Shown: piece after piece, positions 1 to 22,207 of the stretch
How the letters are laid out: every line of letters begins with the position of its first letter
Numbering within the stretch: position 1 is the first letter of the stretch
Virus record (IMG/VR): IMGVR_UViG_3300020204_000419
Location: 1-22,207 of that record
Strand: one strand, 5' to 3'
Origin: a virus
DNA: 22,207 nt
Notes under the pieces: model-generated
What the model was told of the DNA's origin: nothing
What the model saw: the letters and a program-made list of their open reading frames with translations, nothing else
Database searches by the model: none
Program-made: the position numbers and the translations under genes

Positions 1-636
1 GACGAACTAAAGGCGGAAGCAGAAAGACAACTTTATGCGGAGGGTGAGTTACTAACAGCTAAGGGGGGTGTAAAGCCTGAGGATATACAGGCGGCGTTTG
101 CGGTAACACCTTCTGAAAGAGTCCAAGAAGCCAAGGATGATGCGAAAGGACTGACCCCATTAAATCCGGAGGTTAGGACAGCTACCATAGAGATGGAGCG
201 GGAGGCTGCGAAGAAGATAGCGGAAGATGAAAGAAGCAGGAATAAAGCGGATTTACTAACGGCACTAAAGCTAGGTTCAGATGCCTCAAACGATGCAATA
301 TATCAGGCACTTCAAACTAGACCTGCTCTTGGAGGCTTGGCTCAATCCGCAGGTTTCTTTTTAGATGACCCTGAGATCACATCAGCGGACGACTTGTATG
401 TATCAAAATACGGAGTATTTAAGCTAAATCCGAGAGACTTGCCGTCCATGTTGGGAGGAGGGGTAGCGTTCACCAAACCGGGAGGGGCAGTAGATCAGTT
501 GGCAAAGGGTATGGGGATGAACATAGGGACTGTGACGATTCATGTAGATGGGTCAAAGTCGCCAGAGGAGACGGGTAAGGCGGTGGTGGGGGAACTTCTT
601 AAACTGAAAAAGCGTAAGGAGGGTAAGGCAATATGA
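1..636 (+). CDS. Tail tape measure protein, C-terminal end (5' partial)
   Basis: The reading frame is open from base 1, so this is the last 211 residues of a longer protein whose start lies to the left; the internal ATG at 193 is not a start. The first 80 residues are charged and helical (rich in E, K, A, R). Residues about 110-165 carry a glycine/proline turn region, with LYVSKYGVFKLNP followed by a glycine-rich stretch and FTKPGG. The last 35 residues contain a beta strand TVTIHVDGS followed by SPEETGKAVVGELLKL. A closing strand plus helix of this kind, after a 'location then long helix' layout, is typical of the C-terminus of phage tape measure proteins, which set tail length and are threaded through the tube. 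The position directly before adaptor, hub and spike genes supports this. The stop overlaps the next gene by ATGA. The assignment rests on C-terminal pattern and context; the diagnostic long helical body is outside the window. Confidence 0.62.
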   Translation, partial: DELKAEAERQLYAEGELLTAKGGVKPEDIQAAFAVTPSERVQEAKDDAKGLTPLNPEVRTATIEMEREAAKKIAEDERSRNKADLLTALKLGSDASNDAIYQALQTRPALGGLAQSAGFFLDDPEITSADDLYVSKYGVFKLNPRDLPSMLGGGVAFTKPGGAVDQLAKGMGMNIGTVTIHVDGSKSPEETGKAVVGELLKLKKRKEGKAI

Positions 637-1263: not shown

Positions 1264-2220
1264 ATGAAAGCCACCACAGCCACAGCCCCATATGTAGACC
1301 TATACACGACCGATGAGTTTATCCTATTCCCTGAGGATAACTTGGGGACTATTCCCCTTGATCCTGTTAATCAGCAACACCTTAGGTCTTTCTCTCCATT
1401 TGTGTTGTCGATAAATCCGCCTCAGATGGGAAACTACACCACCAATGCAGGGAGACCCTTTAGGTCTCCCTTAGGCATTTCGGATAGTCAAAGGTATTCA
1501 ATAGACACGAAGCGAGCGAGATTGATTTCACCTAATATCTCGACAAGGGCAAGTACTCCAATATCGAGTGGTGGGGTTGAACCAAGTGTTCCGTATCTGC
1601 AAGCGGGTGTAGTGGATAGAGATGTAGTGATTGACGCTGTTCTTCAGCATCAACAACTAAGACAACTCCCACCAATCATCTTTTTGATCAATCCGACATC
1701 TTTTGCGGTGAACTATACGGACATACAAAACTACGGAGATCAGACTAAATATGGGTTTATTTTCTACAGATGGGGCGAAGATTTAACAAAGATTTCTGTC
1801 TCGTGTCGGCTAGGTGCTTTTATAGCGGGCAGGGAGAACCCTAATGAGGGATTAAATGCAGAAGGACAAATGAAGGGCATCTCAGGGCTTCAGTTTGTCT
1901 CTCGCAGAGACTCGGCTGGATGGAGACAACTTATGTCTATTTTTGCCATCTATCGTAATAGCGTGACTATTGCGGATAGACTTGGAAGAAGCCGTGCTTA
2001 CCACGACATTGGAACACAATCTATCCATTATGATGGGCAAAGATATGTGGGAAGAATGGATAGTTTTACATTTGGGATAACGGAGGAGAATCAGTTGGGG
2101 GGTGTGGAGTTTAGTTTTGATTTTGTGGTGTATGAACACCATCAAGACAGCTTTGAGATGAAATCATCTCTTAGTCCAATGTATCCGCCAAGTGCGACTT
2201 GGTTGGGGGGACTGACATGA
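1264..2220 (+). CDS. Tail tube-baseplate adaptor-like structural protein, copy 2
   Basis: A 318-aa protein starting 4 bases after the previous stop. Residues about 135-185 contain FLINPTSFAVNY, then FYRWGEDLTKISV and LGAFIAG, which line up with the NP/GWVE/GD/GAFI core of the upstream gene. The second half also matches: a helix WRQLMSIFAIYRNS, then YVGRMDSFTFGITEENQLGG and FSFDFVVYEHHQ, like the SFSV...PYQFS end of copy 1. It differs by a 130-residue N-terminal extension with its own SINPPQM motif, rich in S, T and P. The pair suggests an ancient tandem duplication giving two rings of different size. The stop overlaps the hub start (ATGA at 2217-2220). The function is inferred from context; the paralogy is seen in the sequence. 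Confidence 0.58.
   Translation: MKATTATAPYVDLYTTDEFILFPEDNLGTIPLDPVNQQHLRSFSPFVLSINPPQMGNYTTNAGRPFRSPLGISDSQRYSIDTKRARLISPNISTRASTPISSGGVEPSVPYLQAGVVDRDVVIDAVLQHQQLRQLPPIIFLINPTSFAVNYTDIQNYGDQTKYGFIFYRWGEDLTKISVSCRLGAFIAGRENPNEGLNAEGQMKGISGLQFVSRRDSAGWRQLMSIFAIYRNSVTIADRLGRSRAYHDIGTQSIHYDGQRYVGRMDSFTFGITEENQLGGVEFSFDFVVYEHHQDSFEMKSSLSPMYPPSATWLGGLT
2205..2210 (+). promoter_or_regulatory. Shine-Dalgarno site that selects the hub start at 2217
   Basis: A run of six G lies 6 bases before ATG 2217, and that ATG overlaps the preceding stop as ATGA. The in-frame TTG at 2199 would put the start before this site, so it is not preferred. Confidence 0.55.
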
Positions 2221-5200
2221 AGATCGAAAATAGACCCTACGCAGGCAATTGGACATCGGACATAAAAAACAAGTACCGAAGGGTACGAAGTTGGACACCC
2301 GATGCAATAGTTCAGTTCAACGGAGATACCTCCGTTCCGGGCTGTAATGAGTGCAAGAACAAGATAGACTTCCAAGCATTTATTACATCTGTGTCAGTAG
2401 GAGCTGGCGTTACGCCCAACTCGAATAGCTGTTCCATCAATGCCATTATTCCTAGAGCATATGGAGACAGCGTATTTAAAGATGGCGAGTTTATCCTAAT
2501 ACCCGGAGTCGAAGTTAATGTGTACTTCCGTGGGTTCTTCAAAACGGATGAACTATTAGGTGCAGGGGATACTATCCGTCTCAATGAAGAAGATGTGGAT
2601 TTATCCAAAGTAGAGATGCGTCCTTATTATCCCGTTTTTCATGGAGTATTAAGCGGTGTTGATGTTGATCAAACCCTTCAAGGGTCTTACTCCATAAGCA
2701 TGAGCTGCAAGGCACTTTTAGCCTTTTGGGAAAACCAACAGGTAAACACAAACGCAGGTTATTTTGCCGCTCAACCCACAGAGTCAAAGGGCAGCATTCA
2801 ACTAACGGGGCATAAATACACCGATATGACCCCCCATCAAATCATCTATGACCTTTATCTAGACTCGGGTGGTTCCGCACAAGGTACAGGCTTCGCTCTA
2901 CAGAAAACGGATAACATGAAGGCAAAGTCCGTAACAGGACAGCAGTTTTATTCTCTTGCCCTTAGATATTGGGAAAACCGCTTTGAAAATGGATTGTATG
3001 GGCTGAGGATGTATGGCGTATCAGGCAGACTTTATTCAGCTACTGAAACAGCCCTTTTATCCGATGTCTCAATCAAAGGTAAAAAGAACGAGTTTGTATC
3101 CGTAATCAAAGAAGCCTTACAACCTCACGCTGACAAGAAGCCCAGCCCCCTGCTTAAACGCTTCATGGAAGCAGGTTTGGTTCAGTATGACTCCAACGAT
3201 AGGAAACTTCTTCGCTTACCTGATCTTCAGTTTCTAACTCAGGCATCTGAGGATGATCGAGGAGGCGGCGTAAATGTACGAGCACTTAAAGAGTTTATTA
3301 CAGATATCGGAGCCTTGGGTCAAGTGAGTATGTTTGAGTCTAGCTTTACGAGCAAGCTCTCTCTTGCAGGAGATGTCGCTCAAAAGTGCGGCTATGAGTT
3401 CTTCCAAGACCTCGATGGGGATTTGGTCTTTAAACCACCCATGTATAACCTAGATACTTCAGATAATCGCGTCTATCGAATCCAAAGGGAAGATATTTTA
3501 TCCATTTCGTTCGGAGTGACAGAGCCTGAAGCGACCTATGTTATCTGTAAAGGTGGACCCTTTAGAAATATATCGGGTGTGATCGACTCAGGCGAATGGG
3601 GAGTAAAAGGAACCTATGTCGATTACCATCTAGTGGCGAAGTTTGGGTGGAAAGAACACTCCTTTGACACGAGCTTCTACAACACTAAAAGACAAGCCTA
3701 TTATGCCGCAGTTGTTGAATTAGACCGCATCAATAAAGGCATGAATACCTGCAACATCTCCATACCACTAAGACCTGAAATTAAACCAGGTTATCCAATA
3801 TATATCGAACACATAGATTGTTTCTATTATGTCGAATCCGTAAGCCATAGCTTCTCTTATGGAAGTTCAGCCACAACAGGACTCACTCTCACTTGTAGAC
3901 GAAAGAAGTTTATCCCTCCCGGCGATGCTGATGTTGATTATGCGAATGATCCCGCCCGTGCCGTTGACCTCGGAAGAACAGACCTCCCCAAGAAATACCT
4001 ATACAAAAAGGTTAAACTATCCAATGATCTAGGCGACTCTTATGAAACCCGTAAAATAGCGGGATTTCCTAATGTCGTTATGGCTCTTGACCCTACGAAG
4101 ATTGACCCAGGTTTTTTGACCTTTTCCATAGACTTTCAAGCCATAGGTGGTCTTGGAACTGCACAAAGAACTGCCTACAGAAACAACCTGATTATTGAAG
4201 CCAAACGCCTCAAAATCCTAGAAGTAGCTGACGACGGAGACCTGTTCAATGGACCTTGGGTTTTGAAACTACCCAACACAAATAATCCAAGCGGAGAACC
4301 CATAAAAGGTAACTTGTCGTTGGAGGGTGAAGGGTCACAAACAATAACCCGAAATAAAAAAGGTGTGGTGGTCACTCGTAGAGATGGCTCTGCCGTTACA
4401 CGCAGAACTTCCAAAAAAGATGGAGTCATCATCAAAGGAGAATCCGAGCTAGAAATAGCCGCAGTAAAAAGACAACAAGCCAGCCTCAAAGCTGCTCAAC
4501 TCGCTGCACAAGGTCAAAGAGGCAAAGCACAATCCATTAAAGACCGCGAACAGGCACAACTAGAGTTTGAGCAAACTATCCAATCCCTGAGGGGGAATGC
4601 GGAGAGTGGGTTTACAATAGTGGATTTGCTCACCGCAGTTAAGGAAGCACGATACTCAACCAAAGAGAACTCGGCAATAGAGGCAGGAAGCACGGCTAAT
4701 ATCCTCAGACTTCTTCAAAATAAGAAAGCATCTTTTGGACCTCAGCTACCTGGATATTACCGCTACTTCTCTTCTTCTCACCCTGCCCCCGAACACCAAG
4801 CCCCCGACTTAATGGATGCTGAAGTGACCGAAAATGCGGAACAGGCTAGGCTTACTCTGAAAGAAGGTCGGATAGATGACACCGATGTAAATATGGTCTT
4901 TAGCGAAGGTGGAGGAGATTCGATTTATTACTCCGAAGGTCTGATTAAAAAAGGACTTCTTACCCGCACTCAGTATTCCAACGACTTTGAAATCGTCCCC
5001 ACAAAAGATATCCTCACGCTCTCTTTTCAAAAGCATGGGACTCTTGAGAAACGCAAGGTCACCACCACATCACCTAAGGCATCAGGGTGGGGAGTAAGGG
5101 GTCAGACCTTTTGGACGGGCTTCTTTAATAATATCCGAAGTTTCCTCACTAAAGAAATCCAAAAGGGAACACAGAACGCTCGCGTCCTAGCTGACTCGTT

Positions 5201-6344
5201 GTTTTCGGATAACTTCGCAGGGGCTTTCTTCAATTCTGTCCTGCCCAACAAGATGTTCCCCGATACCACCGATAATGATCTAATCACAACGGATAGCGTT
5301 TTTACCGTGGTTGGCTCCTTGAGAGGTGTGATGATCAAACATCATGAAGCCCAAAGACCGAATTATTATGGAGATGGCTTTGATGCCGTCACGGCATTAA
5401 ATGGGACTCTGGCGGATATGAGATCAACTTTTAAGAATGCGGATAGGTTCTTCCCAAGCACGGCGGTTTCCAAGACAACGGCTGAAAAGACCACATGGTC
5501 AAAAGACACCTTTGTGTCTCCGATATTCCCTGTGTCGGATGAAAATGGATTTGAGGTTTTTGGAGCGTATCAATATGGGAGGGGGTTAGAAATATCCAAA
5601 GGCGGAAGTTTTGATCAGCTTTTGGTGCAAGACCCGACGCGGGTCTTTTCGGCTAAAGACCTGCAATCTTTTGTCTTGGACAACAATGGGAGTCCTGAGG
5701 GAACGAGAGAGCAAAGGGGGAAGGTTATTGCAGAGAAGCTAAAGGAAATAGAAAAAGCGGGCAGATTAGACATCATAGATAAGATAGCCTCATCGCGGGG
5801 TTTAGAAAGGGGAGACTTATTAGGGAATGTGTCGCAGGAGATGTTGAACAAATTAATGACGACACTAGACGAGCAGGTGATAACGAATGTGCCGAAGAGG
5901 ATAAGCGAGATAACCCCACCGAGCAGGGGAGATGCGATGTGTAGATGTAAGGCACAGAGCACGGACTTGGAGTTATTGGCACTAGCATCAGACACATCAA
6001 ACTTTGTATCTGTGGGGAATGCGATTAAGACGGAAATGGATATAGTGAACAATGTGGGTAGAGAGATAGCGAGCCGAGAGACGGATTACAGGACACACGA
6101 GGCGGCATTGAGGCATGATTTAGACGCACAGGGAGGTGAGGGTACATTTAAGAGACTGACGGGGGCATTTGGGAGGGTGGGTGGGTCTGTAGTTGAGGAT
6201 TATGAAAACTTGGTTTCTGAACTAGGGTCTACGGAGGAGTTGTTATCTGAGACATTGGATACTTTGGTGGAGAGGGCAGGAGAGATAGGTACAACGGATA
6301 GGGAGAGAGTGGAAGCGGCAAAGAAGCTAAGAGGGAGAGGTTAA
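2217..6344 (+). CDS. Baseplate hub protein with long C-terminal extension
   Basis: 1375 aa. The first ~570 residues look like a hub of the T4 gp27 / P2 gpD (late control D) kind. An early strand set has SVSVGAGVTPNSNSCSINAI and LIPGVEVNVYFRGFF. A later barrel ends in RPEIKPGYPIYIEHID, followed by YYVESVSHSFSYG, ATTGL and LTCRR. The 'YYVESVSHSF...TTGLTL.CRR' closing strand is characteristic of these hubs, which form the trimeric platform for the spike. The spike gene follows one base after the stop. Beyond the hub the protein runs another ~800 residues: a charged, probably coiled-coil stretch (about 720-800), a globular part with PVSDENGFEVFGAYQYGRG near residues 1103-1121, a CRCK motif near 1240, and a helical tail. 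Typical hubs are about 350-500 aa, so the extension is unusual. CNEC near residue 42 could be a metal site but is not proven. The coding style changes near 5.4 kb from C/T-ending to A/G-ending codons. Confidence 0.68.
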   Translation: MKIENRPYAGNWTSDIKNKYRRVRSWTPDAIVQFNGDTSVPGCNECKNKIDFQAFITSVSVGAGVTPNSNSCSINAIIPRAYGDSVFKDGEFILIPGVEVNVYFRGFFKTDELLGAGDTIRLNEEDVDLSKVEMRPYYPVFHGVLSGVDVDQTLQGSYSISMSCKALLAFWENQQVNTNAGYFAAQPTESKGSIQLTGHKYTDMTPHQIIYDLYLDSGGSAQGTGFALQKTDNMKAKSVTGQQFYSLALRYWENRFENGLYGLRMYGVSGRLYSATETALLSDVSIKGKKNEFVSVIKEALQPHADKKPSPLLKRFMEAGLVQYDSNDRKLLRLPDLQFLTQASEDDRGGGVNVRALKEFITDIGALGQVSMFESSFTSKLSLAGDVAQKCGYEFFQDLDGDLVFKPPMYNLDTSDNRVYRIQREDILSISFGVTEPEATYVICKGGPFRNISGVIDSGEWGVKGTYVDYHLVAKFGWKEHSFDTSFYNTKRQAYYAAVVELDRINKGMNTCNISIPLRPEIKPGYPIYIEHIDCFYYVESVSHSFSYGSSATTGLTLTCRRKKFIPPGDADVDYANDPARAVDLGRTDLPKKYLYKKVKLSNDLGDSYETRKIAGFPNVVMALDPTKIDPGFLTFSIDFQAIGGLGTAQRTAYRNNLIIEAKRLKILEVADDGDLFNGPWVLKLPNTNNPSGEPIKGNLSLEGEGSQTITRNKKGVVVTRRDGSAVTRRTSKKDGVIIKGESELEIAAVKRQQASLKAAQLAAQGQRGKAQSIKDREQAQLEFEQTIQSLRGNAESGFTIVDLLTAVKEARYSTKENSAIEAGSTANILRLLQNKKASFGPQLPGYYRYFSSSHPAPEHQAPDLMDAEVTENAEQARLTLKEGRIDDTDVNMVFSEGGGDSIYYSEGLIKKGLLTRTQYSNDFEIVPTKDILTLSFQKHGTLEKRKVTTTSPKASGWGVRGQTFWTGFFNNIRSFLTKEIQKGTQNARVLADSLFSDNFAGAFFNSVLPNKMFPDTTDNDLITTDSVFTVVGSLRGVMIKHHEAQRPNYYGDGFDAVTALNGTLADMRSTFKNADRFFPSTAVSKTTAEKTTWSKDTFVSPIFPVSDENGFEVFGAYQYGRGLEISKGGSFDQLLVQDPTRVFSAKDLQSFVLDNNGSPEGTREQRGKVIAEKLKEIEKAGRLDIIDKIASSRGLERGDLLGNVSQEMLNKLMTTLDEQVITNVPKRISEITPPSRGDAMCRCKAQSTDLELLALASDTSNFVSVGNAIKTEMDIVNNVGREIASRETDYRTHEAALRHDLDAQGGEGTFKRLTGAFGRVGGSVVEDYENLVSELGSTEELLSETLDTLVERAGEIGTTDRERVEAAKKLRGRG

Positions 6345-6345: not shown

Positions 6346-8628
6346 ATGACAGCAACAGATTTAATGAGAGAGAGGCTAGAGTTTGAGAGTAGATCACAGG
6401 GTTGGTCTGCGTTATCATTGGGGATAGCGATAGTATTGGAGATACAATGGGAGGAGTTTAGGTGTACGCTTCAAATCCTGCATGGAGCGGGAGCGGATAC
6501 CACAATGAATGGCGTAGAGTTGATGATGCCATCTATGGGGAACAGGCACTTTTTGGGTGGGATACCTGAGAGGGGAGACAAGTGTGTTGTGGGATGGTTT
6601 GCAACGGAGACAAAGGGGGACACATCGCAGAAAACCCCTGCGATATTAGCTTGGCTTCCTGCGTCTAGTTATTTGGGACATGAGTGGATACCTGTTCAAG
6701 GCATCACACCTGATGAAGGGTTGATGGGGAACTTGAAAGACCGACAAAAGATCAGGTCTTTTTATCAACGGATAAGGCACAAGCTAAAGCACTACAATGC
6801 GGGGAACATCGGAGCATCATCTGCACAGGGATCGGATTTGCTCTTAGATGAGAGTGTTCATTTATCCAATAGACGCTCAAATGAGATCATATTAAGAGAT
6901 CAAGATCAGGCGATTGTTTTTAGGTCTTTACAGCAGTTTCACGCTTTGAGTGGGGCGAGGGTTTATGGGGGCATGGTTCAGCGAGATGCTCGTTTGTTAC
7001 CTAAGGAGATGTTTTCAGACGGGATCAAGTGGGACGCGGCTGTTCAGCTTGATGAAGAGGGCAATCCATTCATCCCACAAGAGACTTCTTTGTTAGACAT
7101 TTCCAAACTTGATCCACATCCACTTTTCAATCGGGGTAATGACTCTTATGTAGATGCTGAGGGCTCTTTTCATTTATCCAATACCCTGTTTGAGAGAGAC
7201 ACGCCATCGGGAACGATGCCTAAGAGCATAGACCCCTATCGCTTTCTTTATCAGGCTGGCTTGGTTTCGGATAAGTTTAAGGATGAGACGGATAACTATT
7301 TAGGTGAGGTGTATGGAGGGAAGTCGATATTGAGGGTTGGAGATGTGTTCAAAGAAAACGCGATGTTAAATGGAAATGCGTTTACGGAATATCGGATAGA
7401 GGTTACGCATACAACGGATGGTTCTTTACCTGTAACGGAACAGACGGATGGGTTTGACAGCGATAGAGTACCTGAAACAAGAGGGGGTTCAAATAACACG
7501 CCCTTTATCGAGTGGGTCATTGGAACCCCTGTTGGGAATGATCCATTTTCAACGCTAGGCAAAGAGACCTTCGGATTGCCTTTAGTCTCTGAGATAAAGG
7601 ATACATTAGGGATACTGAAGGGAGCAACGGAGTCCACTTCGTTGGTGGATCATTCAGCAACTTTATTAAGAGTAAAGCCGATAGTGGAGGCATTGGACGA
7701 CACCTTCATAACGCTCACAAAGGGCGGCAAGTTTAGAGCGTTCATTTCATCCCCTGCCCCTGATGCCGTTCAGGTTTTAACAAAAGGCGGGGTAGCGATT
7801 AATGCAGGGGGTGAGATATCCGTTAGAGGGTCGAGTTTATCCTTGAGTGGGGACACGGGATTGGCTGTGACATCTGCGAGCGGAGCCATAAATTTATCCG
7901 CCAGCGGAACAAGTATCCAAAATGGGCAAGAGGTTTCTTTATCCATATTGGGTAAGAAGCGAGTGAGTATTCAGAGCAATGTGGCGATAGAGTTTAAGGC
8001 ACCCTTGGTAGATTTCTCAAATGCGGGAGAGATTAGACTAGCGAGTCAAAGTCAGTTATCTTTGAACACGGGGGCGGGTATGGAGTTATCGGCACAGTCG
8101 ATGAAACAGGTTGCATTGGGGGAGTACAACCTTGTGGTATCGGGACCGACAAACTTCAATACGGCTCAGGGTGCTTCTCGATCAGTCACCATAGCGTCCA
8201 ATCCTGCATCAGGTAGTGCAGGTCCTTCGGATAGTTATTTGAATGTGTTTGGAGGAAGAACAGAGACCTATTTGGGTGTCACTACCAACACCAAAACGAT
8301 TGCTTCAGGGACGGAAACAAAAACGATTGTAGCGGGTACGGACACCACCATTGTTGGCACCAACACACAAGTGATTGACCCCACGGGATTCAAGTTCTTA
8401 GCCCCTGCGGGAGGTGTGGTGATACAAGCGGGGTTGGTAGTATCCGTAAATGCCACATCTGTCGTGATGACGGGAACAGCGAACATCACTTTATCTGCAC
8501 CTTCGGTTTTATTATCCTCACCGGGTGCTTCTTTTGGACCGATTGTTTGTGGGTCGGATATTCATCCTATACTTGGAGTACCATTTGCCACCTTTTGTCC
8601 CCCAAGAGGGCAAAACCTTTCGCCCTAG
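6346..8628 (+). CDS. Baseplate central spike (gp5/gpV-like) with beta-helix
   Basis: 760 aa, starting one base after the hub stop with AGGGAGAGG just upstream. The N-terminal ~90 residues fit an OB-fold cap: FRCTLQILHGAG, GVELMMPSMGN and GGIPERGDKCVVGWF resemble the 'P..GD.V.V.F' OB strands of phage spikes. A long middle domain (about 90-450) has no family I can name firmly; it carries RSNEIILRDQDQAIVFRSLQ and MVQRDA. From about residue 460 to 730 the chain becomes short S/T/G/A/V-rich strands (for example GGEISVRGSSLSLSG and GAINLSASGTS), as in an intertwined beta-helix needle. Residues about 645-675 form a near-repeat, TKTIASGTE / TKTIVAGTD / TTIVGTN. The final 30 residues contain VCGSDIHPILGVPFATFC, a likely tip. 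No lysozyme motif is visible, unlike T4 gp5. The role is membrane puncturing at the tail tip. Confidence 0.75.
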   Translation: MTATDLMRERLEFESRSQGWSALSLGIAIVLEIQWEEFRCTLQILHGAGADTTMNGVELMMPSMGNRHFLGGIPERGDKCVVGWFATETKGDTSQKTPAILAWLPASSYLGHEWIPVQGITPDEGLMGNLKDRQKIRSFYQRIRHKLKHYNAGNIGASSAQGSDLLLDESVHLSNRRSNEIILRDQDQAIVFRSLQQFHALSGARVYGGMVQRDARLLPKEMFSDGIKWDAAVQLDEEGNPFIPQETSLLDISKLDPHPLFNRGNDSYVDAEGSFHLSNTLFERDTPSGTMPKSIDPYRFLYQAGLVSDKFKDETDNYLGEVYGGKSILRVGDVFKENAMLNGNAFTEYRIEVTHTTDGSLPVTEQTDGFDSDRVPETRGGSNNTPFIEWVIGTPVGNDPFSTLGKETFGLPLVSEIKDTLGILKGATESTSLVDHSATLLRVKPIVEALDDTFITLTKGGKFRAFISSPAPDAVQVLTKGGVAINAGGEISVRGSSLSLSGDTGLAVTSASGAINLSASGTSIQNGQEVSLSILGKKRVSIQSNVAIEFKAPLVDFSNAGEIRLASQSQLSLNTGAGMELSAQSMKQVALGEYNLVVSGPTNFNTAQGASRSVTIASNPASGSAGPSDSYLNVFGGRTETYLGVTTNTKTIASGTETKTIVAGTDTTIVGTNTQVIDPTGFKFLAPAGGVVIQAGLVVSVNATSVVMTGTANITLSAPSVLLSSPGASFGPIVCGSDIHPILGVPFATFCPPRGQNLSP

Positions 8629-8637: not shown

Positions 8638-9051
8638 ATGAGACTTCTTTATTTTGCGTATGGGTTAAACCTAGATACAAACGCGATGATGGAGATGTAT
8701 CCCTACACGCAGTTTTATTCTTTCGCTGTTTTAAAAGACTTCTGTCTTTGTTTTAAGGACGGGTATCCCTCTGTAGAGGCTAAAGGGGATCACTTTGTAG
8801 AGGGAGTTCTCTACAACATCGCCCTCGATGACCTGAAAGCATTGGATAAGCAAGAGGGCTATCCGTTTTCATCTATGCGGTCTAGCACGGACATCATAAC
8901 GGATAGTGGGAAGTTGGTGAAGGCGATGGTGTACACCACCTTAAAAGCCAAGTCCCAAATCAGCACAGAGGCTGATAACTTTGAGTATCTAAAAAAGTTT
9001 TATTACCGATATGGTTTTGATAAACGCAATCTAAGTCTTGCCTCGTCTTAG
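8638..9051 (+). CDS. Gamma-glutamylcyclotransferase-like protein (GGCT/AIG2-like fold)
   Basis: 137 aa with a good Shine-Dalgarno AGGAAAG. Enzymes of this fold cyclise gamma-glutamyl amines or amino acids to 5-oxoproline. Visible family marks are YFAYGLNLDTN at residues 5-15 (the substrate-loop position normally occupied by YGSNL), HFVEGVLYNI at 52-61 and LKALDKQEGYP at 66-76, where E73 sits at the position of the catalytic glutamate in the usual 'Ld..EG.P' motif. The length is normal for the family. The loop has leucine where serine is usual (YGLNL), which may alter binding. The gene follows the spike by 9 bases and so is probably expressed late with the tail genes. Its stop overlaps the converging gene by 4 bases. 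The fold is fairly sure; activity and substrate are not. Confidence 0.78.
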   Translation: MRLLYFAYGLNLDTNAMMEMYPYTQFYSFAVLKDFCLCFKDGYPSVEAKGDHFVEGVLYNIALDDLKALDKQEGYPFSSMRSSTDIITDSGKLVKAMVYTTLKAKSQISTEADNFEYLKKFYYRYGFDKRNLSLASS

Positions 9052-13872: not shown

Positions 13873-16800
13873 TTTGTAAACTCCTAAGGGCTGTGGCAGT
13901 AGAGGTAGATGTGTTGTAGTTGATACGGCTCATTTTGGCGAGTGTCCCATTCGTCTGATGAGTTCGGATGTTTATCCAAGCCAAACGATTTTCTCTTGCC
14001 TCAAGAAGAGCCAAACCATCGTCCAACACGCTAGGCAAAGCGGACTCCACTTCCCCATAGCCTTCCGTCTCTAACAATGGGTCTTCACCCATAAAACGCC
14101 TATCTAATACTCCCAAACAAGTATCCGTATTAACAAACGGCTTTAACCCTGTTAATCCCTTGATGTTATCCAATAACACATCGTTGGCAGGATGTGTCGG
14201 ATCACCGATACCTGCTTTGGTCATATAGTCTTGTTGTTCATACTCTTCCCAAGTCACCATGTTCTGAGGAAACGCATTGAAAGCAAAGACCCGCTCTGCC
14301 CAAGAGAGTGTCCGCTCTCTGTAAAACAAGAACTCCTCCGCTACAGCTCTCACCAATCCATTCTTCATCCTCACCACTCGGTATGAGAAAGGATGGATAC
14401 TATCCGTAGTGGTCGCATAAGTGTCTACGACAACACCTGCGGTTACACGCAAAGGATTGGAAACAACACCTCCAATAGTGGGCAGTAGATTGTAAGAACT
14501 CCTTTGTGTATCCCCAACGCTTTCCTCCACCATCAGGTAATCCGAACCCACCTCAATAACCCTGTAGGCTCCTCTATTGTCGTCTAGTTCATGTGGTGAA
14601 CCCTCCACATAGTTAGCCTGCCCTACAAAACCCTGATCTCCCCTCGGAGGATAACCATACTCCTCGCTATTCAAAAGTTTACCCTGAGGGTCTATCACAA
14701 GGTAATCACCAACTTCTACGCCCGTGAAGTCCGCGTTCAAATCCGTTAACACTCCTTCCGTGTCCACAGATATGCCCGACATCGCGGGGGATTCGACTAT
14801 CACATCAAATCCATGATTGAAGTAGCTCTCAAAAGACTGAAGAAGCGGCACTATCCCTACACGAGTTCTTATCTTGAATGACACACCCTCTACAACAGAA
14901 CCCCTAATCTTCTCGCAGGTTAACTCGCCTTCCTCAACCAAGACTATCCGTAGTCGCAGGGTTTCTACACCCACTTCGTCATAAAGGAAAACCTGATCGC
15001 CAGCTTTACATACGCTTGGGAAATTGCCTATTTGGGTATCCGTCCCATCAGCGTTTTCTTGTGTCAAATAATCCACAGAAAGAGCTGTCAGCGAATAAGA
15101 GCCATTTCCCAAATCTGTTATGTCATCTACCAAACCTTGTCTTTGCTCATACACATAACGGAATGAAGAAATACCCTCCACTACACCCTTGACCACATCC
15201 GTAAACCTACGAGGTCGCCTGATCATTAAACTCACCCGCTCGGTAAATGGATAAACAGGTAAGAAGTCTAATGTGTAATCTAGGGGACTCCGTACTTGGC
15301 TTGATCCATCTCCAAACAAAGCAGGTGTGGCATAATCGCCCACAAGTCTAGGAAAAGACTTATCCAAGTAAATGCCAGCGATTACGGATACTTCAAAACG
15401 GAATATGTCCAAGGGCAACAAGAACGCTTCTCCATAAGAGTTTTCGTCTTGCACATCGTCTAAAGTACCCCACTCTATCCCATAGACAACTCCGTCCTCA
15501 TCCACCAACGCATCAAGAGATGCTGCGATGGATAAACCCCCTGCTATGGATAAAGATAAATCTAGTGTCGCTCCCAATGTGCAGGGGGCTTCATATGGGA
15601 CAAAATCCGTCTTGGATAAATCAAAACCTGCTTTCTTATGTCCTGAAATGGATTGCCCAAAGTCCTCTCCCAACAGGCCAAACAACTCGCTAAGGTTCAC
15701 AGCTGTCCCATCTAAATAAGCCACATTCGCTTCCGAAAACACAAAAGCACTCTCGGTTCTCGACACATAACTTATCCTTAGTGCTGATCTTCCATAAGAG
15801 CGATCATAAACACCAAGTGTTGTGGACAATGGTCTAGACCTGTAACCCTCCGTAAGCAAAACGATAAAATCACCCGTTTCATTGAAGTATTTGGATAACT
15901 CCAAACTATCCGTCTGAAGTGTTGCAGATATGCCGAGCGTACTCAGTCCAATCACCTTTGGGAACTGCACTCCCACAACCACGCTTTGTGTGGCTATCGC
16001 CTCCACAACGCCATCCGTTACACCCTCGGTGTAGAATTTCACACGCTGAAGACCTGCATTGTGTCCAATTGACACATACACCAAATCACCATCCCTGACT
16101 CCACTCGCATCCTCTGATAAATTACGGATAACACCCTTCCCATAATCTATGCCCCCTGACACAAGACCCAAATCACCTAAGCCCTTATAAATCACATCAG
16201 CCTCGTCCACCTCTGAACCGACCATAATGGATAATCCCACACCACTTAAAGAGATGTCCGCTTCTCCGCTAGAACGGAAACCATAAAACAAAAGTCCATC
16301 CGATAACACTTCTTTTACTTCAAAACCTATGCCCGCATTTAACTGCTCCGTGTTGTTTACATCTGAGGACACTATCGCAGTTGATACACCCCCTTCTTCC
16401 ATTACCACAAACCCACTATCCAATACTCGGACACTTGTGGTGTACGAACCTTGTACTTCAAATGCTCCAAATAATGGATAAGTCTCTCGTATGGAAACCC
16501 GATCCGAAGGTACATGACAGCTTGTGGAGATCGCATCATAACCTAAATGGAAATCCATGTACCAAGGTGAACCGCCAATGGTCGTGGATATTGTCTCACC
16601 CGTGACAGATGCTGACAAGTCTCCCCAAAACGAAGAAGTTTTGAAGAGCCAAGTCTCTCCTGTAAAGGCAGGAAGAGGAGGCACATTCGGATTGATTGTG
16701 GGATTATCCACAATCGTTAGGGTATCGCCTAGATAGGATATGGAGACTAAACTATTCGGGGTCTGTACTGAACCTAGATACCTTTGAAAGGTGACAGACC

Positions 16801-19800
16801 AATCCGCCAACCCTCGGGTAAAGGTGAAGCGTCCATATCTAAACAAACCTCCGTTCTTCCACACATCAAGGATAATCTGATTATTCGCAATCCCTTCTCC
16901 CGCTAGGTAATCCAAATACAAGAAGTATGTTCGATACTTTGTGTTCGAGAACACCAATTCCGCCGTGGACACATCGTACTTGCCCGATCCCAAGATCGAC
17001 TCGCTCAAGGTTTCTTTGACCTGCACACCCACATCATTATCCGCTAGGTGATACACCAAAGCATTTGAAACGCTAAGGGATAAATACCCACCTACATTTG
17101 AAGCAGGGAAGCGAGGAGGCATTAACTCCGTACCCTCGATGTAAGCCAGCTCCAAAAGCCTGTCTTCAAATACCAATAAATCACCTTCTCTAGGAACTTG
17201 AACACACTCACCCTCAAGGGCTGTGTAGTCATATGATGCCGTCAATACACCATCATCACCCACCACCCCATTGTCTCTCACCTCATCAGGATAAGCGTAC
17301 TCCAAGGTTCCTTCATTATCTGTTGTTGTTGTCAATCGCTCCAAATAGGGAGGAAGAGTAATCAACACATCCCGTTCCGTCAGAGGTTTTCTGAATGGGA
17401 TTGTCTCATCTCCATCATCATTTAAGACTTCCCCTCTCAGAGCAGGATAACCATACGGCTCCAAACTCGAATAACCAAAAACAACATCCCCCTCTAATGC
17501 CTCATTTGCCTCAGGTACATTTTGACCCAATAACTCCTTAATTGGATAGTTTGGGTCATAGCCACTCGGCAAGCTCAGGTCGATTATTTCCCCTGATGCC
17601 GACCTCAATCCCACATCGGCTCCCACTCGATAAACAACGCTCTTACCTTCCTCGTCCAAATCCAACGCAAAACTTTGAAGTATGGTATCGCCCCTCTTAG
17701 GCATAAACACACCCCCAAATGCCTCCAAATTTGTCGCTGATCCATTCAGCACCACCACGCAACCATTCACAATCTCTTTGATGGTCGCATTCCTCGGCTC
17801 GCCGGATAAACTGAAAACAGATGTTATGTCATACGCATATCTACCCATGTCTAATACCCTTGAGAAACCTACACCATCTACACCCAACTCCACCTTGTCT
17901 CCTACACTCAACCCACCAAATACCCTATCCAAACTCCCCACCACTACATCAGACACATCCCCACCCTGAGAAATAAATCTCGCCGTATCAGGATAACCCG
18001 TCGAGATGTCGATTGGAAAGTCCTGTAACGAAACCGCAGACAAAATCAACGAAGGTCGCCCACTTGAACTCGGTGCATATGCAGGGAAACCCACCGCCGA
18101 ATACGCAACCACTCTAAACCTGCCTCCCCTCTTTGTTAAACTTAAAGATGAGACATTCTGCATCCGACCTAAAGCAGGATTCTCCACCAATCCTATCACC
18201 TCTCCAAAGGTGCTAGATAAACCCCTTAAAAAGTACAAATCCCCTCCCGCTCTATAGCTCATCATCTTAGCCGATTGGGGAAATAATCTCGACTCCACAC
18301 TCGGCTTCCACAAGGGAGAATAAATAGGATCATACTCATACTTCACAAACGGATAACCTAGCTCTAGGACTTGAGACATCCTCTTGGAGTATCCCACCAA
18401 GGCAAAATCATCCATTTCATTCTCTACAAGTGCTCTTTGTCCCTCTCTCAATTCCTTGAATTCCACCACACTCGATACTGATCCCGTCTCCACCAAATAC
18501 CTCGGTGTAATCTCTCGCTTTATAGGGTCTTCTAATCCTGCCCCTAAACCATCCAATAACTCAAACCTAAATATCCCGTCTCCATCTCCCACAAGTTTCC
18601 CCATCACACTCGATAACAAACAATCTATCGGCTCAATAAATCCATTGTATTGCTTTATCTTGTTCCTCGCCACCACATCAGAGGCAAGCAAATCAAAATA
18701 ACCATACGACAAACCTCGCTTCACCCTAACATCTCGCTCCAACTTGCCCCCATAACCCCTCTTATCTTCTATCCTCAAACTATCCAATAACTCACGCTCC
18801 ACCTCACCTGCGTATGTGGTGTCATTGACCGTCCTGAAATAAAAGACATCAGGGGCGTAAATCAAACACTTCGCATATATCTTCTTCCCCACATATCCAC
18901 TACTCGGCACTCGCCTCTCTACATACTCCATCTCATATGTCGGATACTCCACCTCACCCGTAGATAACACCCGCTCTGATATGTACCCCTGTGCTGTGTG
19001 CTTCAGGTAATACTCCTCTCCCACCTCTATCCCCACACTCAGCCTGATTGAACTCTCTCCAATTACATAATCCACCCCCTCCTCCAACTCATAACCCAAA
19101 CCCTCTCCCACTACATAACGAATTAATCTGTAACCCTTGTCTCTCAATACTCCCGACAAAAGCGGCAGCTCCAACGATCCCTCCACTAACACATCTCTCA
19201 TCGAAACTAATAAACTATCCGTCTCATGTGCTGATGTTTGTCCCAATACTCTCAATATCGTCACGCCATCCTTAAACTCTACAGACACTACCCTGTAAGG
19301 CACCCCCCCCACCACCACCAATCCCTTGATCAAACCCCTTAAATCCCCGCCTAAAGTAATCTCCGTACCCCTAACCCTACTCTTACACGATACCCCCAAC
19401 ACACTCCTAAATACATAACCCGATGATCTTAATACACTCACTTCCCTCGTCTTCAATCCATATCTCGCTGATGGGAATACAGAGACCAAACCCGCACCCA
19501 CAGCAGTCACCATGAATAAATGCCCACCCACATCCAACATATCTCCCACTCCCACACCCTCCACCTTCAAACTTGTCCCTCCCTCCGCTATCGACACCTC
19601 CTCGATTTCCGTTATCCCACTCCCCGTCTTTACCACATACTCCCCTCCCAATGACCTCGACACATAATAACTGATCCTCACATCCCCCTCCGCCTTGCAG
19701 TATATCCTATCCCCCGTTACTCGATAACCACCAACCAATAACTCCGAACCTACCCATACACTCGGGGCTATGTCCAAATCCACACCCTTCTCCAATCCAC

Positions 19801-22207
19801 CATAACTAAACTCACCCTCACCCACCAACACCGCTGACTCCTCCAATACCAAAAATAACGAAGACTCCAAAACCCTCTCCAATTCACCCTCAGGTATGTA
19901 CGACACCTCCACTCCTATCCCTGATCCCAACGGCTCCGCAAATGAGATCGAACCCGTACTCACCTCATATTTCACCCTGTCCTCCGACAATAACTCCATC
20001 ACCTCCAAATCTACCCCCTCACCAAACGGACTCGATAAATCATCATAACCAACACTCACCTCCGCTCTATCCAATAAATCAGGACGCGGTACTCCCTTGT
20101 AATAACACTCCGTCACCCACCCACTATCCAATACACCGTCCTTTACAAAATCTATCCGCCCATCACTCGCCCTCGTAAATCCCTTCCCCGATACAATCAC
20201 CCCCTCTTCATAAACTACTCCCCCCACCTCCAAACGATAATATCCACCCCTATACTCACTATCCATTACATAGAAATCCCTAAACTCCCGCCTCTTTAAG
20301 ACCACCAACGGATAATACACATCGTCGAGCCCCCCAACCTGCCTCAAATACAATTCCGATGTCGGATGCACAAAACCCCACGCCTCGGATATTCCCCTTA
20401 TGCAGTACACCTCCACACTCCGCCTCGCAGGTCGCAGACGCTCCCAACACTCACCCAATAACTTACTCGGATCAGGCTCTCCCCCACCCTCATCATAACC
20501 TGCATACTCCACCCAACCCAATCCCGACTCATCTAACCTCTCCGTTGATGATAATAAACCCCCCTCCAATACTCGCCTCCAATAACCATCACTACCCAAT
20601 ACATAATTACCCACTCCCAAATCCATCTCCTCCAATCTCAAACCCCTGCTCACCTCTCCCATCACCTCCTTCTTAAATCTTACCCGACCTCCCAAACCAT
20701 ACAACACCTCGTAATCCAACCCCTCCTCTAATCCAATACCACCCACCGATAACCCCAACATCTCTAATACCCCCGATCCACTCTCCACACTATCCAATAC
20801 CCCCCTGACTAACCCCACCTTGCTCACTCGACCTAGCCATGTAAATGATCCACCCATGTCCAAATCATACGCTATGTCCTCTCCCCTTACCAAATAACCC
20901 GCAGACCCTACCCTGAAATGACGCAAACCTATCTCCTCCCCTCCCCTCCATAAATTCACCTCACCTCCAATACCACCCAATATACTCACACTCCCCAAGC
21001 CAGCACTCACCTCCCCTACCTCCTCTCCATCATATGAAATATATCCCCTCACCCCAAAACTACCCACACTCAAACATACTCCACCCGCATACCTCTCGTG
21101 CGGCACTAATCCCAACTTATCCAAATCTCCCGATAATGACTCCACACTCCCCAATATCCTCATGTAACCATATCCGTCCAACTCCACTAAATCACTCCCA
21201 CTCAGTAACTCCCCCTCAGACCAACTCACAGACTCCCCATTCACATATATCTCCCCTGAGCTGATACCTATTCCCCTACTCGATACATAACCCAGCCCCC
21301 CCCTGTCTAACCACACCAAACCCGTACCATACTTCGCACCACTAAAGTCATATATCCGCTTCCCCCCCACACGCCCCAAATCAACTAGTGATACATACGC
21401 CTCCCCTACCCTCATCGACTTCTCGTCCACTTCCCCATACACCACTCGCAATACCTCCCCACTCCCAAGAAGTATGTACGACCCCCTTAGCAAATTACCA
21501 AAAAATCCCCCTCCCTCATGCCCACTCACTCCAAAACTACCCTCCTCTATGTAACCACCTACCAACTCACTCTCCAACTCCATACCCACAGGTCTGTCAC
21601 ATAACACCAACCCCGAATACTCCAACTCCTCCACCCCACTAAAATATACCCTGCCACCCTCTATCTCATACCCCTCATAATAATCCCCCCCCACTCGCCT
21701 CAATAACGGATACTCATTCATATGCGGACTCGGAGATAAATAATCCCCTGACCTCAGTCGCGATGACACCACTCCCAACCTCCCCCTCAATACCACTATC
21801 CCCATACCCCTGTCCGACTCTGATCCCAGCCCCCAATGCAACTCTCCCAATAAGACATAACCATAACCCAACCAATCACCCTCAGGCTCACTATCCAATA
21901 TCGGCAAATCCTCCCCTCCCACTATATACCTCCCCCCATCTATCACTAACTCGTCTCCCAACTCCAATAACAAACCCTCCAATACATCTCCCACTACCTC
22001 CTCCCTCACCTCCCCTCTACCTCCCCCTAATAACTTCCATGTCCCCCCCTCCCACCTAAACCTCTCCCTCTCGCTGTCATTAGAAGTCCACCAATATCCC
22101 ACTCCCTCCAATAAAACCTCGCTGTCAGGCTCCCCTCCCAAACTCAATACACATAACCCCCCCTCCAATACCTCCAACTCCTCCCCTCCACGAGTCCCTC
22201 GCTTTAT
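13865..22207 (-). CDS. Giant beta-domain baseplate/fibre protein (5' partial, at least 2780 aa)
   Basis: The frame stays open to the right edge, so the true start is outside the window; the TTG at 22177 is not a credible start. The visible 2780 residues are almost all beta-rich with few helices. Two local patterns recur: (a) 'DY.V....G.I.F....G..V.V.Y', as in GLDYEVLYGLGGRVRF, EGVDYVIGESSIRL and KYEVSTGSISFAEPLGSG; and (b) 'GV.VGD.L.V.G....V..V....L.V', as in VEVGDYLVID...YRVIEVGSDYLMVEE and VGVGDMLDVGGHLFMVTAVG. Small repeated sandwich domains like these are common in phage fibres, tail-tip and baseplate proteins. The C-terminal ~150 residues switch to a helical domain (SWAERVFAFNAF ... LLEARENRLAWINIRTHQ), a likely attachment or assembly end. 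The first ~1300 visible residues are dominated by G, E, V, L, S, Y and D and the coding strand is almost C-free. The role is probably an outer baseplate arm or host-contact protein; an exact family was not recognised. Confidence 0.66.
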   Translation of the reverse strand: MKRGTRGGEELEVLEGGLCVLSLGGEPDSEVLLEGVGYWWTSNDSERERFRWEGGTWKLLGGGRGEVREEVVGDVLEGLLLELGDELVIDGGRYIVGGEDLPILDSEPEGDWLGYGYVLLGELHWGLGSESDRGMGIVVLRGRLGVVSSRLRSGDYLSPSPHMNEYPLLRRVGGDYYEGYEIEGGRVYFSGVEELEYSGLVLCDRPVGMELESELVGGYIEEGSFGVSGHEGGGFFGNLLRGSYILLGSGEVLRVVYGEVDEKSMRVGEAYVSLVDLGRVGGKRIYDFSGAKYGTGLVWLDRGGLGYVSSRGIGISSGEIYVNGESVSWSEGELLSGSDLVELDGYGYMRILGSVESLSGDLDKLGLVPHERYAGGVCLSVGSFGVRGYISYDGEEVGEVSAGLGSVSILGGIGGEVNLWRGGEEIGLRHFRVGSAGYLVRGEDIAYDLDMGGSFTWLGRVSKVGLVRGVLDSVESGSGVLEMLGLSVGGIGLEEGLDYEVLYGLGGRVRFKKEVMGEVSRGLRLEEMDLGVGNYVLGSDGYWRRVLEGGLLSSTERLDESGLGWVEYAGYDEGGGEPDPSKLLGECWERLRPARRSVEVYCIRGISEAWGFVHPTSELYLRQVGGLDDVYYPLVVLKRREFRDFYVMDSEYRGGYYRLEVGGVVYEEGVIVSGKGFTRASDGRIDFVKDGVLDSGWVTECYYKGVPRPDLLDRAEVSVGYDDLSSPFGEGVDLEVMELLSEDRVKYEVSTGSISFAEPLGSGIGVEVSYIPEGELERVLESSLFLVLEESAVLVGEGEFSYGGLEKGVDLDIAPSVWVGSELLVGGYRVTGDRIYCKAEGDVRISYYVSRSLGGEYVVKTGSGITEIEEVSIAEGGTSLKVEGVGVGDMLDVGGHLFMVTAVGAGLVSVFPSARYGLKTREVSVLRSSGYVFRSVLGVSCKSRVRGTEITLGGDLRGLIKGLVVVGGVPYRVVSVEFKDGVTILRVLGQTSAHETDSLLVSMRDVLVEGSLELPLLSGVLRDKGYRLIRYVVGEGLGYELEEGVDYVIGESSIRLSVGIEVGEEYYLKHTAQGYISERVLSTGEVEYPTYEMEYVERRVPSSGYVGKKIYAKCLIYAPDVFYFRTVNDTTYAGEVERELLDSLRIEDKRGYGGKLERDVRVKRGLSYGYFDLLASDVVARNKIKQYNGFIEPIDCLLSSVMGKLVGDGDGIFRFELLDGLGAGLEDPIKREITPRYLVETGSVSSVVEFKELREGQRALVENEMDDFALVGYSKRMSQVLELGYPFVKYEYDPIYSPLWKPSVESRLFPQSAKMMSYRAGGDLYFLRGLSSTFGEVIGLVENPALGRMQNVSSLSLTKRGGRFRVVAYSAVGFPAYAPSSSGRPSLILSAVSLQDFPIDISTGYPDTARFISQGGDVSDVVVGSLDRVFGGLSVGDKVELGVDGVGFSRVLDMGRYAYDITSVFSLSGEPRNATIKEIVNGCVVVLNGSATNLEAFGGVFMPKRGDTILQSFALDLDEEGKSVVYRVGADVGLRSASGEIIDLSLPSGYDPNYPIKELLGQNVPEANEALEGDVVFGYSSLEPYGYPALRGEVLNDDGDETIPFRKPLTERDVLITLPPYLERLTTTTDNEGTLEYAYPDEVRDNGVVGDDGVLTASYDYTALEGECVQVPREGDLLVFEDRLLELAYIEGTELMPPRFPASNVGGYLSLSVSNALVYHLADNDVGVQVKETLSESILGSGKYDVSTAELVFSNTKYRTYFLYLDYLAGEGIANNQIILDVWKNGGLFRYGRFTFTRGLADWSVTFQRYLGSVQTPNSLVSISYLGDTLTIVDNPTINPNVPPLPAFTGETWLFKTSSFWGDLSASVTGETISTTIGGSPWYMDFHLGYDAISTSCHVPSDRVSIRETYPLFGAFEVQGSYTTSVRVLDSGFVVMEEGGVSTAIVSSDVNNTEQLNAGIGFEVKEVLSDGLLFYGFRSSGEADISLSGVGLSIMVGSEVDEADVIYKGLGDLGLVSGGIDYGKGVIRNLSEDASGVRDGDLVYVSIGHNAGLQRVKFYTEGVTDGVVEAIATQSVVVGVQFPKVIGLSTLGISATLQTDSLELSKYFNETGDFIVLLTEGYRSRPLSTTLGVYDRSYGRSALRISYVSRTESAFVFSEANVAYLDGTAVNLSELFGLLGEDFGQSISGHKKAGFDLSKTDFVPYEAPCTLGATLDLSLSIAGGLSIAASLDALVDEDGVVYGIEWGTLDDVQDENSYGEAFLLPLDIFRFEVSVIAGIYLDKSFPRLVGDYATPALFGDGSSQVRSPLDYTLDFLPVYPFTERVSLMIRRPRRFTDVVKGVVEGISSFRYVYEQRQGLVDDITDLGNGSYSLTALSVDYLTQENADGTDTQIGNFPSVCKAGDQVFLYDEVGVETLRLRIVLVEEGELTCEKIRGSVVEGVSFKIRTRVGIVPLLQSFESYFNHGFDVIVESPAMSGISVDTEGVLTDLNADFTGVEVGDYLVIDPQGKLLNSEEYGYPPRGDQGFVGQANYVEGSPHELDDNRGAYRVIEVGSDYLMVEESVGDTQRSSYNLLPTIGGVVSNPLRVTAGVVVDTYATTTDSIHPFSYRVVRMKNGLVRAVAEEFLFYRERTLSWAERVFAFNAFPQNMVTWEEYEQQDYMTKAGIGDPTHPANDVLLDNIKGLTGLKPFVNTDTCLGVLDRRFMGEDPLLETEGYGEVESALPSVLDDGLALLEARENRLAWINIRTHQTNGTLAKMSRINYNTSTSTATALRSLQNG
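17000..22207. other. Region of extreme strand asymmetry (C-rich, G-poor + strand)
   Basis: Hand counts of single 60-base rows (G/C on + strand): 13921 row 16/12; 15001 row 12/15; 17941 row 8/22; 20641 row 2/29; 22021 row 3/31. The skew grows steadily toward the right edge within one reading frame. The coding (-) strand there is about three-quarters purine in the row counted fully (22021 row: coding G31, A16, T10, C3). Confidence 0.85.

What the first reader, a model, noticed from the sequence alone, without database searches (positions are those of the whole stretch)
1..22207. A short DNA word (GGATA core; ACGGATA and TATCCAATA forms) is massively over-represented
The core is about 3.5 times and ACGGATA about 10 times more frequent than composition predicts, across all genes and on both strands. 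Codon phase varies: ACG-GAT-A (Thr-Asp) at 2909 and 7288, CGG-ATA (Arg-Ile) at 6769, ATC-CGT (Ile-Arg) at 1221 and 2575, TCC-GT (Ser-Val) at 3100 and 8450, and TAT-CCG (Tyr-Pro) at 8863. Use in different frames argues against a protein-level cause and for a DNA-level one. Candidates are a highly iterated word like HIP1 in cyanobacteria, a recombination or packaging signal, a methylation or restriction-linked word, or a binding site for a genome-organising protein.
Basis: partly seen in the sequence, partly recalled or inferred. Interest (0 to 1): 0.78.

Follow-up and report, generated by a model that had tools for sequence, protein, structure and literature searches.

The report
Phage genome peppered with one word
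A family of giant bacterial viruses carries one short DNA word per lineage many times more often than chance would allow, the word changes by a letter or two between lineages, and nearly all viruses that have it also carry an unusual set of DNA-marking enzymes, so the word is probably where they stamp their own DNA.

Summary
Confirmed and extended. The window is a jumbo-phage tail/baseplate fragment. GGATA is 3.7x and ACGGATA 10x over base composition. The sharp word is WWYGGATAR (55 sites in the window), and it survives a null that keeps protein sequence and codon usage (GGATA z=12). It is genome-wide: 2.7/kb in an 82-kb contig of the same phage and 2.05/kb in a 290-kb relative, against 0.12/kb (chance) in relatives with about 54% protein identity. 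It is equal in sense and antisense, in genes and gaps. Sites are conserved beyond codon expectation (z~10; control words no). Related phages iterate other, similar 7-mers (AGAAATC, AGAAATA, RGAAATR, AGAAAKA, CGAACTR). In a contig search by protein alone, 12 of 13 phage groups with a ~400-aa SPPY-type DNA-methyltransferase family (>=43% identity, up to 7 paralogues) bear such a word; no locus with more distant homologues does. The window's phage encodes one, orthologous to one in the other YGGATAR phage. Best reading: the word is a phage methyltransferase's recognition site, kept numerous by selection for marking phage DNA. The enzyme-word link is co-occurrence, with one exception (CGAACTR without the enzyme); methylation and its benefit are untested. 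It resembles cyanobacterial HIP words but is non-palindromic and viral.

The parts
1..22207 (.). Set of 55 WWYGGATAR sites (2.5 per kb). Plus-strand starts: 1148, 1479, 2055, 2906, 5204, 5288, 6293, 6767, 7266, 7391, 8226, 8841, 8898, 11155, 11712, 12074, 12807, 13107, 13750, 15246, 15545, 15890, 16123, 16226, 16473, 17541, 18348, 20307. Minus-strand sites (read YTATCCRWW on +), left ends: 2021, 2601, 3057, 3498, 3791, 4017, 4576, 6862, 7174, 7939, 8859, 10333, 10671, 12406, 13865, 14166, 14400, 14944, 16416, 17925, 18780, 20067, 20124, 20259, 20790, 21117, 21891
   Evidence: 52 in coding sequence against about 6 in codon shuffles
2906..2914 (+). representative site AACGGATAA (Thr-Asp phase, tail-protein gene)
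6767..6775 (+). representative site AACGGATAA in another codon phase (CGG-ATA)
8859..8867 (-). representative site AACGGATAG on the minus strand (TAT-CCG phase of the gene at 8638-9051)
2199..6344 (+). tail/baseplate-hub-like gene (1381 aa) carrying sites; it identifies the window as jumbo-phage tail region
   Evidence: phrog_52 tail protein E 1.5e-5, phrog_196 baseplate hub E 0.008; 40% id to 485-kb uncultured phage LR745208
6346..8628 (+). 760-aa gene used to find relatives (100%, 84% and 54-55% identity groups)
1..9436 (+). stretch 99.9% identical to G001 (IMGVR_UViG_3300020190_000033) 72791-82226; the same contig encodes the candidate methyltransferase at 48011-49189 (outside the window)

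Best explanation
The word is the recognition sequence of a phage-encoded DNA methyltransferase, and the phage genome has filled up with it. Each lineage of this jumbo-phage group carries one to seven paralogues of a ~400-residue enzyme with a conserved SAM-dependent amino-methyltransferase domain (motif TSPPYF, the type usually linked to N4-methylcytosine) and a variable N-terminal half that probably reads the DNA. In the window's phage and its 290-kb relative the shared orthologue would recognise 5'-YTATCCR-3' / 5'-YGGATAR-3'. Lining up the words of all lineages (YTATCCR, GATTTCT, TATTTCY, YATTTCY, YAGTTCG, TCTTTCT) leaves T4 and C6 constant, so C6 is the predicted methylated base (the A opposite T4 is the alternative). 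About two marks per kb would label phage DNA, either as camouflage from the host's defences or as a self tag for a phage enzyme, and selection keeps the sites. Shown: the word, its lineage specificity, its DNA-level maintenance, and the co-occurrence with the enzyme family. Inferred: that the enzyme reads the word, the base modified, and the benefit.
For: Sharp recognition-like word: substitutions in the GGATA core drop counts to near background while flanks are graded. Genome-wide in G001, G010, G011 and G002 (2.0-2.7 WWYGGATAR/kb in G001 and G002), chance level in G005, G006, G008, G009. Both orientations and intergenic DNA equally, so not RNA or codon. Synonymous codons inside sites are identical between G001 and G002 in 58-62% against 39-41% expected (z~10), controls z~0, no excess against relatives lacking the word. 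AGAAATC sites in G009/G005 are 81% intact against 39% of permuted words, per-base divergence 0.055 against 0.148. Amino acids at word codons of G002 differ from those relatives more than expected (z -3.4 to -4.7; reversed-word control +0.9 to +1.4; weaker in G001), so the pull on DNA bends proteins. Sister lineages iterate similar 7-mers. Methyltransferase family: present in G001, G010, G002 (3), G003 and G009 (3), G005 (7), G017 (4), G026 (3), absent from wordless G006 and G008. Search by the enzyme alone: of 21 loci at >=43% identity (13 phage groups) 20 carry a word of this set with z>=7; none of the loci below 43% that were long enough to test does. G001 and G002 share one exclusive orthologue. 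Homology to DNA methylases, methyltransferase fold with pLDDT 89 and Z 15.9.
Against: G016 (289 kb) has a very strong word (CGAACTR, 7.9x) but no member of this enzyme family, although it has other N6_N4 methyltransferases. G026 has three copies and the word GAGCGCG rather than one of the set; G025 has one distant copy and no clear word. G005 has seven copies, and its other candidate words are weaker and less sharp. AGAAATC in G002 has no obvious orthologue of the enzymes of the other AGAAATC phages. Word and enzyme are both inherited along the phage tree, so co-occurrence is partly confounded. Wordless relatives carry other methyltransferases, so methylation in general does not produce words. 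Phages with distant homologues show no word. No modification data exist here.
Confidence: 0.5

Rival explanations
1. The word is a binding or recognition site for some other phage protein (nucleoid or compartment protein, recombination or Chi-like regulator, primase), and the methyltransferase family merely rides along in the same lineages.
For: G016 has a word without the enzyme family. The graded WW flanks and Y/R positions look like a binding-site logo as much as a methylase site. Two multi-helix-turn-helix proteins occur in G002.
Against: No strand or replication-arm skew, as Chi or KOPS would show, and spacing is near random, with a coefficient of variation of 1.04-1.14. The multi-HTH proteins have no homologue in the other word-bearing phages. 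No DnaA C-terminal domain is encoded although YTATCCR resembles part of a DnaA box. Besides the enzymes and their cassette, few long proteins are shared by word-bearing phages and absent from G006 and G008.
Confidence: 0.22
2. Mutational or repair ratchet: methylation at the word biases mismatch repair so that near-matches are converted into the word, with no benefit from the word itself, as proposed for cyanobacterial HIP1 (PMC4390886).
For: Words matched to methyltransferases are the known HIP precedent. High site retention and bent proteins would also follow from a strong ratchet.
Against: The core is enriched over single substitutions at all five positions at once, up to about 60-fold in G002; modification of one base would have to protect or restore all of them. 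No phage mismatch-repair system was looked for.
Confidence: 0.13
3. The word is dictated by the host (its Chi, nucleoid or methylation word), and phages of different hosts match different hosts.
For: Lineage-specific words and strong lineage-specific palindrome avoidance suggest adaptation to different, restriction-rich hosts.
Against: The host is unknown. Word presence follows a phage-encoded gene family and is missing in close relatives (G006, G008). Bacterial loci with distant homologues of the enzyme show no such word.
Confidence: 0.12
4. By-product of codon usage, dipeptides or restriction-site avoidance.
For: Codon usage and dipeptides explain roughly half of the crude GGATA excess.
Against: Codon-shuffle z of 12 in 22 kb and far above the null for sense and antisense separately in the whole contigs; relatives with the same proteins sit on the null; the same in intergenic DNA.
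Confidence: 0.01

Closest known systems
HIP1 and exceptional HIP sequences of cyanobacteria (Elhai 2015, PMC4390886)
   Same: A short word over-represented genome-wide, at roughly 1 per kb; different genomes have different words; the words match methyltransferases that the genome encodes.
   Different: HIPs are palindromic and cellular. Here the words are 7-bp, non-palindromic and viral, they differ by one or two letters between sister lineages, and the enzyme family has multiple divergent paralogues per genome.
DNA uptake sequences of Neisseria and Pasteurellaceae (recalled, not tested)
   Same: Non-palindromic 9-12-mers at about 1 per kb on both strands, with species dialects.
   Different: No uptake or transformation machinery is known for a phage; inverted pairs acting as terminators are not a feature here (adjacent sites share a strand in 330 of 619 cases).
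Chi sites (recalled, not tested)
   Same: Non-palindromic 5-8-mers, over-represented, recognised by a protein that drifts in specificity.
   Different: No orientation bias; AT-rich core; present in phage lineages and absent in close relatives.
Phage N4-cytosine/N6-adenine (SPPY/DPPY) DNA methyltransferases, e.g. Vibrio phage 2.058.O N-4 cytosine-specific methylase (AUS02009)
   Same: 33% identity over the catalytic half; methyltransferase fold; TSPPY motif in the present family.
   Different: A distinct full-length family with a variable N-terminal half, up to seven paralogues, often flanking a thymidylate-synthase-like / PP-loop ATPase / PLP-enzyme cassette.
Phage base hypermodification islands such as CmoX/CmoY of Synechococcus phage S-B43 (PMC12783734)
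   Same: Methyltransferase-like enzyme next to an asparagine-synthetase-like ligase, sequence-dependent modification.
   Different: CmoX is a C5 enzyme with an SPPC motif and GC specificity; the present family has SPPY and candidate words of 7 bp. Whether the cassette acts at the words is unknown.

Membership tests
Highly iterated palindrome (HIP) | strong genome-wide over-representation of a short word in coding and non-coding DNA | tested here: met
Highly iterated palindrome (HIP) | word is palindromic | tested here: not met
   WWYGGATAR and the sister words are non-palindromic
Highly iterated palindrome (HIP) | genome encodes a methyltransferase specific for the word | tested here: inconclusive
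   enzyme family co-occurs with words but its specificity is unknown, and G016 is an exception
Chi site | orientation bias with respect to replication | tested here: not met
   both strands alike along G002, no replichore pattern; replication mode of the phage unknown
Chi site | recognised by RecBCD/AddAB, attenuates degradation | not testable with these tools
   host unknown
DNA uptake sequence | recognised by a competence receptor | not testable with these tools
   needs binding or uptake assays
DnaA box | TTATNCACA consensus | tested here: not met
   after TATCCA the next base is C in about 10% and A or T in 88% of sites; no Bac_DnaA_C domain in the phages
N6_N4 DNA methyltransferase (PF01555) | SPPY/DPPY catalytic motif and SAM-binding motif | tested here: met
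   DFSAGWGDRLVGF-type motif and TSPPYF near-invariant in 23 members
N6_N4 DNA methyltransferase (PF01555) | Pfam gathering score reached | tested here: inconclusive
   G001 and two of the three G002 copies are just below 26.7 bits (22-26), most G005, G009 and G017 copies above
N6_N4 DNA methyltransferase (PF01555) | class I methyltransferase fold | tested here: met
   AlphaFold model pLDDT 89.1; best Z 15.9 over 175 residues (rmsd 3.0) to tRNA m2G methyltransferase aTrm11; M.BseCI also matched
N6_N4 DNA methyltransferase (PF01555) | acts on DNA at a defined sequence | not tested
   needs modification data

The most novel reading that the evidence does not exclude
A clade of jumbo phages runs a fast-evolving self-marking code: arrays of paralogous methyltransferases (or sequence-directed hypermodification enzymes) define non-palindromic 7-bp words, and selection writes hundreds to over a thousand copies of a word into the phage genome, strongly enough to change its proteins. 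Lineages differ by 'dialects' of the word, as DNA uptake sequences do, which could keep co-infecting relatives' DNA apart or block host nucleases.
Probability: 0.35. Interest if true: 0.88.

Novelty: new variant of a known kind. Interest (0 to 1): 0.74.

Why it matters
Why genomes accumulate highly iterated words such as HIP1 has been open for decades. Here the phenomenon appears in viruses, with several sister lineages that differ in word and in enzyme complement, wordless close relatives as controls, and small genomes. That makes the question of selection or mutation, and of what the mark does, directly testable. If the link to the methyltransferase holds, the over-represented word also predicts the specificity of uncharacterised enzymes from sequence alone.

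Tried and rejected
Codon and dipeptide artefact and local effect of one gene: rejected. RNA-level signal: rejected because sense and antisense are both enriched to a similar degree. Replication-oriented or evenly spaced signal: no skew, near-random spacing, no clear helical periodicity. DnaA boxes: wrong eighth base and no DnaA domain. Multi-HTH proteins of G002 as readers: no homologue in the other word phages. The other, split DPPY methyltransferase array of G002 (95.2-100.6 kb): present in wordless relatives too. Distant homologues in Bacteroides, Vibrio and staphylococcal phages and in bacterial genomes: no word. Host identification: TerL finds only one close phage relative, an uncultured one, so the host stays unknown. 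Family searches of window proteins were mostly empty. Foldseek/VIA list no close full-length match for the N-terminal half; that half was not modelled on its own.

Full report
WHAT THE WINDOW IS. The record is a 22.2-kb virus fragment. Its genes are tail/baseplate-like: the 1381-aa product matches tail and baseplate-hub PHROGs and a 485-kb uncultured phage. Its first 9.4 kb are 99.9% identical to the end of an 82-kb contig (G001, IMGVR_UViG_3300020190_000033), and a 290-kb relative (G002, 3300008261_000001) has about 65-75% nucleotide identity, with 80-90% protein identity in many tail genes. More distant relatives (G003, G005, G006, G008, G009; 109-376 kb) share the same genes at about 54% protein identity.

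GGATA occurs 172 times against 46 expected from base composition, and ACGGATA 29 against 2.8. When each gene's amino-acid sequence and codon usage are kept and synonymous codons are shuffled, GGATA is still 164 against 78.6 (sd 7.2), ACGGATA 29 against 6.3 and TATTGGATA 11 against 1.0. The sharp form is WWYGGATAR. In G002, ATTGGATAA is 64-fold over a second-order Markov model, and changing any base of GGATA brings it down to between 0 and 7-fold, mostly about 1, while flanks are graded.

IT IS GENOME-WIDE AND LINEAGE-SPECIFIC. WWYGGATAR runs at 2.7 per kb in G001 and 2.05 per kb in G002, but at 0.12 per kb in G005, G006, G008 and G009, where it sits on the codon-shuffle null. It is similarly enriched in sense and antisense and in coding and intergenic DNA. 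Spacing is close to random and there is no strand pattern along the genome. Lineage-unique genes have almost the same density as core genes (1.76 against 2.14 per kb).

IT IS MAINTAINED AT THE DNA LEVEL. Between G001 and G002, codons for the same amino acid whose third base lies in a YGGATA site are identical in 58% of cases against 39% expected from the same codons elsewhere (z 10.3); reversed and shuffled words give z near 0, and there is no excess against wordless relatives. This alone could partly reflect parallel gain, but in the closer pair G009/G005 (14% divergence) 81% of AGAAATC sites are intact against 39% of permuted words. In G002, amino acids at word codons agree less with relatives lacking the word than expected (z -3.4 to -4.7, reversed-word control +0.9 to +1.4), so the pull on DNA displaces amino acids; in G001 the effect is weaker.

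SISTER LINEAGES HAVE SISTER WORDS. A survey with the terminase found AGAAATC in one group (G003, G005, G009 and others), AGAAATA in another (G013, G014), RGAAATR (G015), AGAAAKA (G017) and CGAACTR (G016), and none in many relatives, including G006 and G008. G002 also carries AGAAATC. Written on the other strand the words share T4 and C6 (YTATCCR, GATTTCT, TATTTCY, YATTTCY, YAGTTCG, TCTTTCT). This alignment is suggestive only.

CANDIDATE WRITER. Comparing gene content showed a ~400-residue DNA-methyltransferase-like family in word-bearing phages and not in wordless G006 and G008: one copy in G001, one in G010, three in G002, G003 and G009, seven in G005, four in G017, three in G026. The catalytic half has a DFSAGWGDRLVGF-type motif and TSPPYF near-invariant; the N-terminal half is variable. 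It is related to PF01555, to phage DNA methyltransferases and to an annotated N4-cytosine methylase, and the model (pLDDT 89) has a class I methyltransferase fold. In five phages the copies flank a thymidylate-synthase-like gene, a PP-loop ATPase and a PLP enzyme, which recalls base-hypermodification islands (compare PMC12783734). The window's phage and G002 share one exclusive orthologue, G001 48011-49189 and G002 217762-218970 (61% identity, 100/100 support).

AN INDEPENDENT TEST. Viral contigs were then fetched by the enzyme alone, without reference to the word. Of 21 loci with 43% identity or more (13 phage groups after collapsing near-identical ones), 20 (12 groups) carry one of the words YGGATAR, AGAAATC, RGAAATA or AGAAAGA with z of 7 or more; the remaining one (G026) carries GAGCGCG. 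None of the loci with lower identity that were long enough to test (6 kb or more) carries any of them. The RGAAATR and AGAAATA phages have exclusive orthologue groups of their own. Limits: word and enzyme both follow the phage tree; G016 has a word but no member of the family; several word-bearing contigs (G013, G014, G015, G018) are too short for absence to count; AGAAATC in G002 lacks an evident shared orthologue.

MECHANISM. The best-supported reading is that each word is the recognition site of one of these enzymes, methylated at one cytosine (predicted C6), and that selection keeps sites numerous because the marks label phage DNA. A purely mutational origin is hard to reconcile with enrichment over substitutions at every core position, but a repair ratchet as proposed for HIP1 (PMC4390886) is not excluded. 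A different reader or binding protein, or a host-dictated word, remain possible. No modification data could be examined.

COMPARISON. The nearest known phenomenon is HIP1 and the other HIP words of cyanobacteria, which also match methyltransferases (PMC4390886). This differs in being viral, non-palindromic and dialect-like. It is not a HIP by definition (not palindromic), but it works like one. No report of such words in phages turned up in eight literature searches; the library is partial.

Noticed in passing
G002 (12 proteins), G005 (21), G017 (10), G009 (6), G001 (3), G010 (3), G026 (4), G006 (3); none in G016, G008: Many otherwise unrelated phage proteins begin with the same leader, about MRRTASEVLRSLEARIARLE. 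It could be a targeting signal (compartment, virion) or a degron.
   Followed up: partly
G002 273246-278121; G005 282890-290081; G009 37580-43608; G017 101011-109361: Cassette of thymidylate-synthase-like, PP-loop (QueC/AsnB-like) and threonine-dehydratase-like genes flanked by paralogous SPPY methyltransferases, resembling a DNA hypermodification island.
   Followed up: partly
G002 95213-100637: Alternating array of short DPPY methyltransferase halves and partner proteins with a variable middle (3-4 copies each), also in the relatives: possibly a split, recombining methyltransferase system.
   Followed up: no
G002, G005, G009, G001 whole contigs: Extreme avoidance of palindromes, different in each phage: AAGCTT 2 against 365, GAGCTC 2 against 311, CTCGAG 2 against 252 in G002; ATCGAT 4 against 382 and TCTAGA 4 against 283 in G005; ACGT words nearly absent in G009. 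Points to restriction-rich hosts and may help to identify them.
   Followed up: no
window 13865-22207 (-): A single open frame of 2780 codons (open at the window edge) with extreme strand asymmetry, GC skew to -0.73 on the plus strand, and no family match.
   Followed up: no
window 8638-9051 (+): Gamma-glutamyl cyclotransferase-like gene within the tail cluster; a diverged copy is at the same place in G002.
   Followed up: no
G002 40943-41776 (+) and 55270-56553 (-): Two proteins made of repeated helix-turn-helix units, with no homologue in the other phages studied.
   Followed up: partly
G005, G009, G018 whole contigs: Further enriched strings: GTAACCCCTTAT-like (TAACCCCT 81 against 15), AGCGT/GAGCGT and CCCGA words; some may be further methyltransferase words, others promoter or terminator elements.
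   Followed up: no
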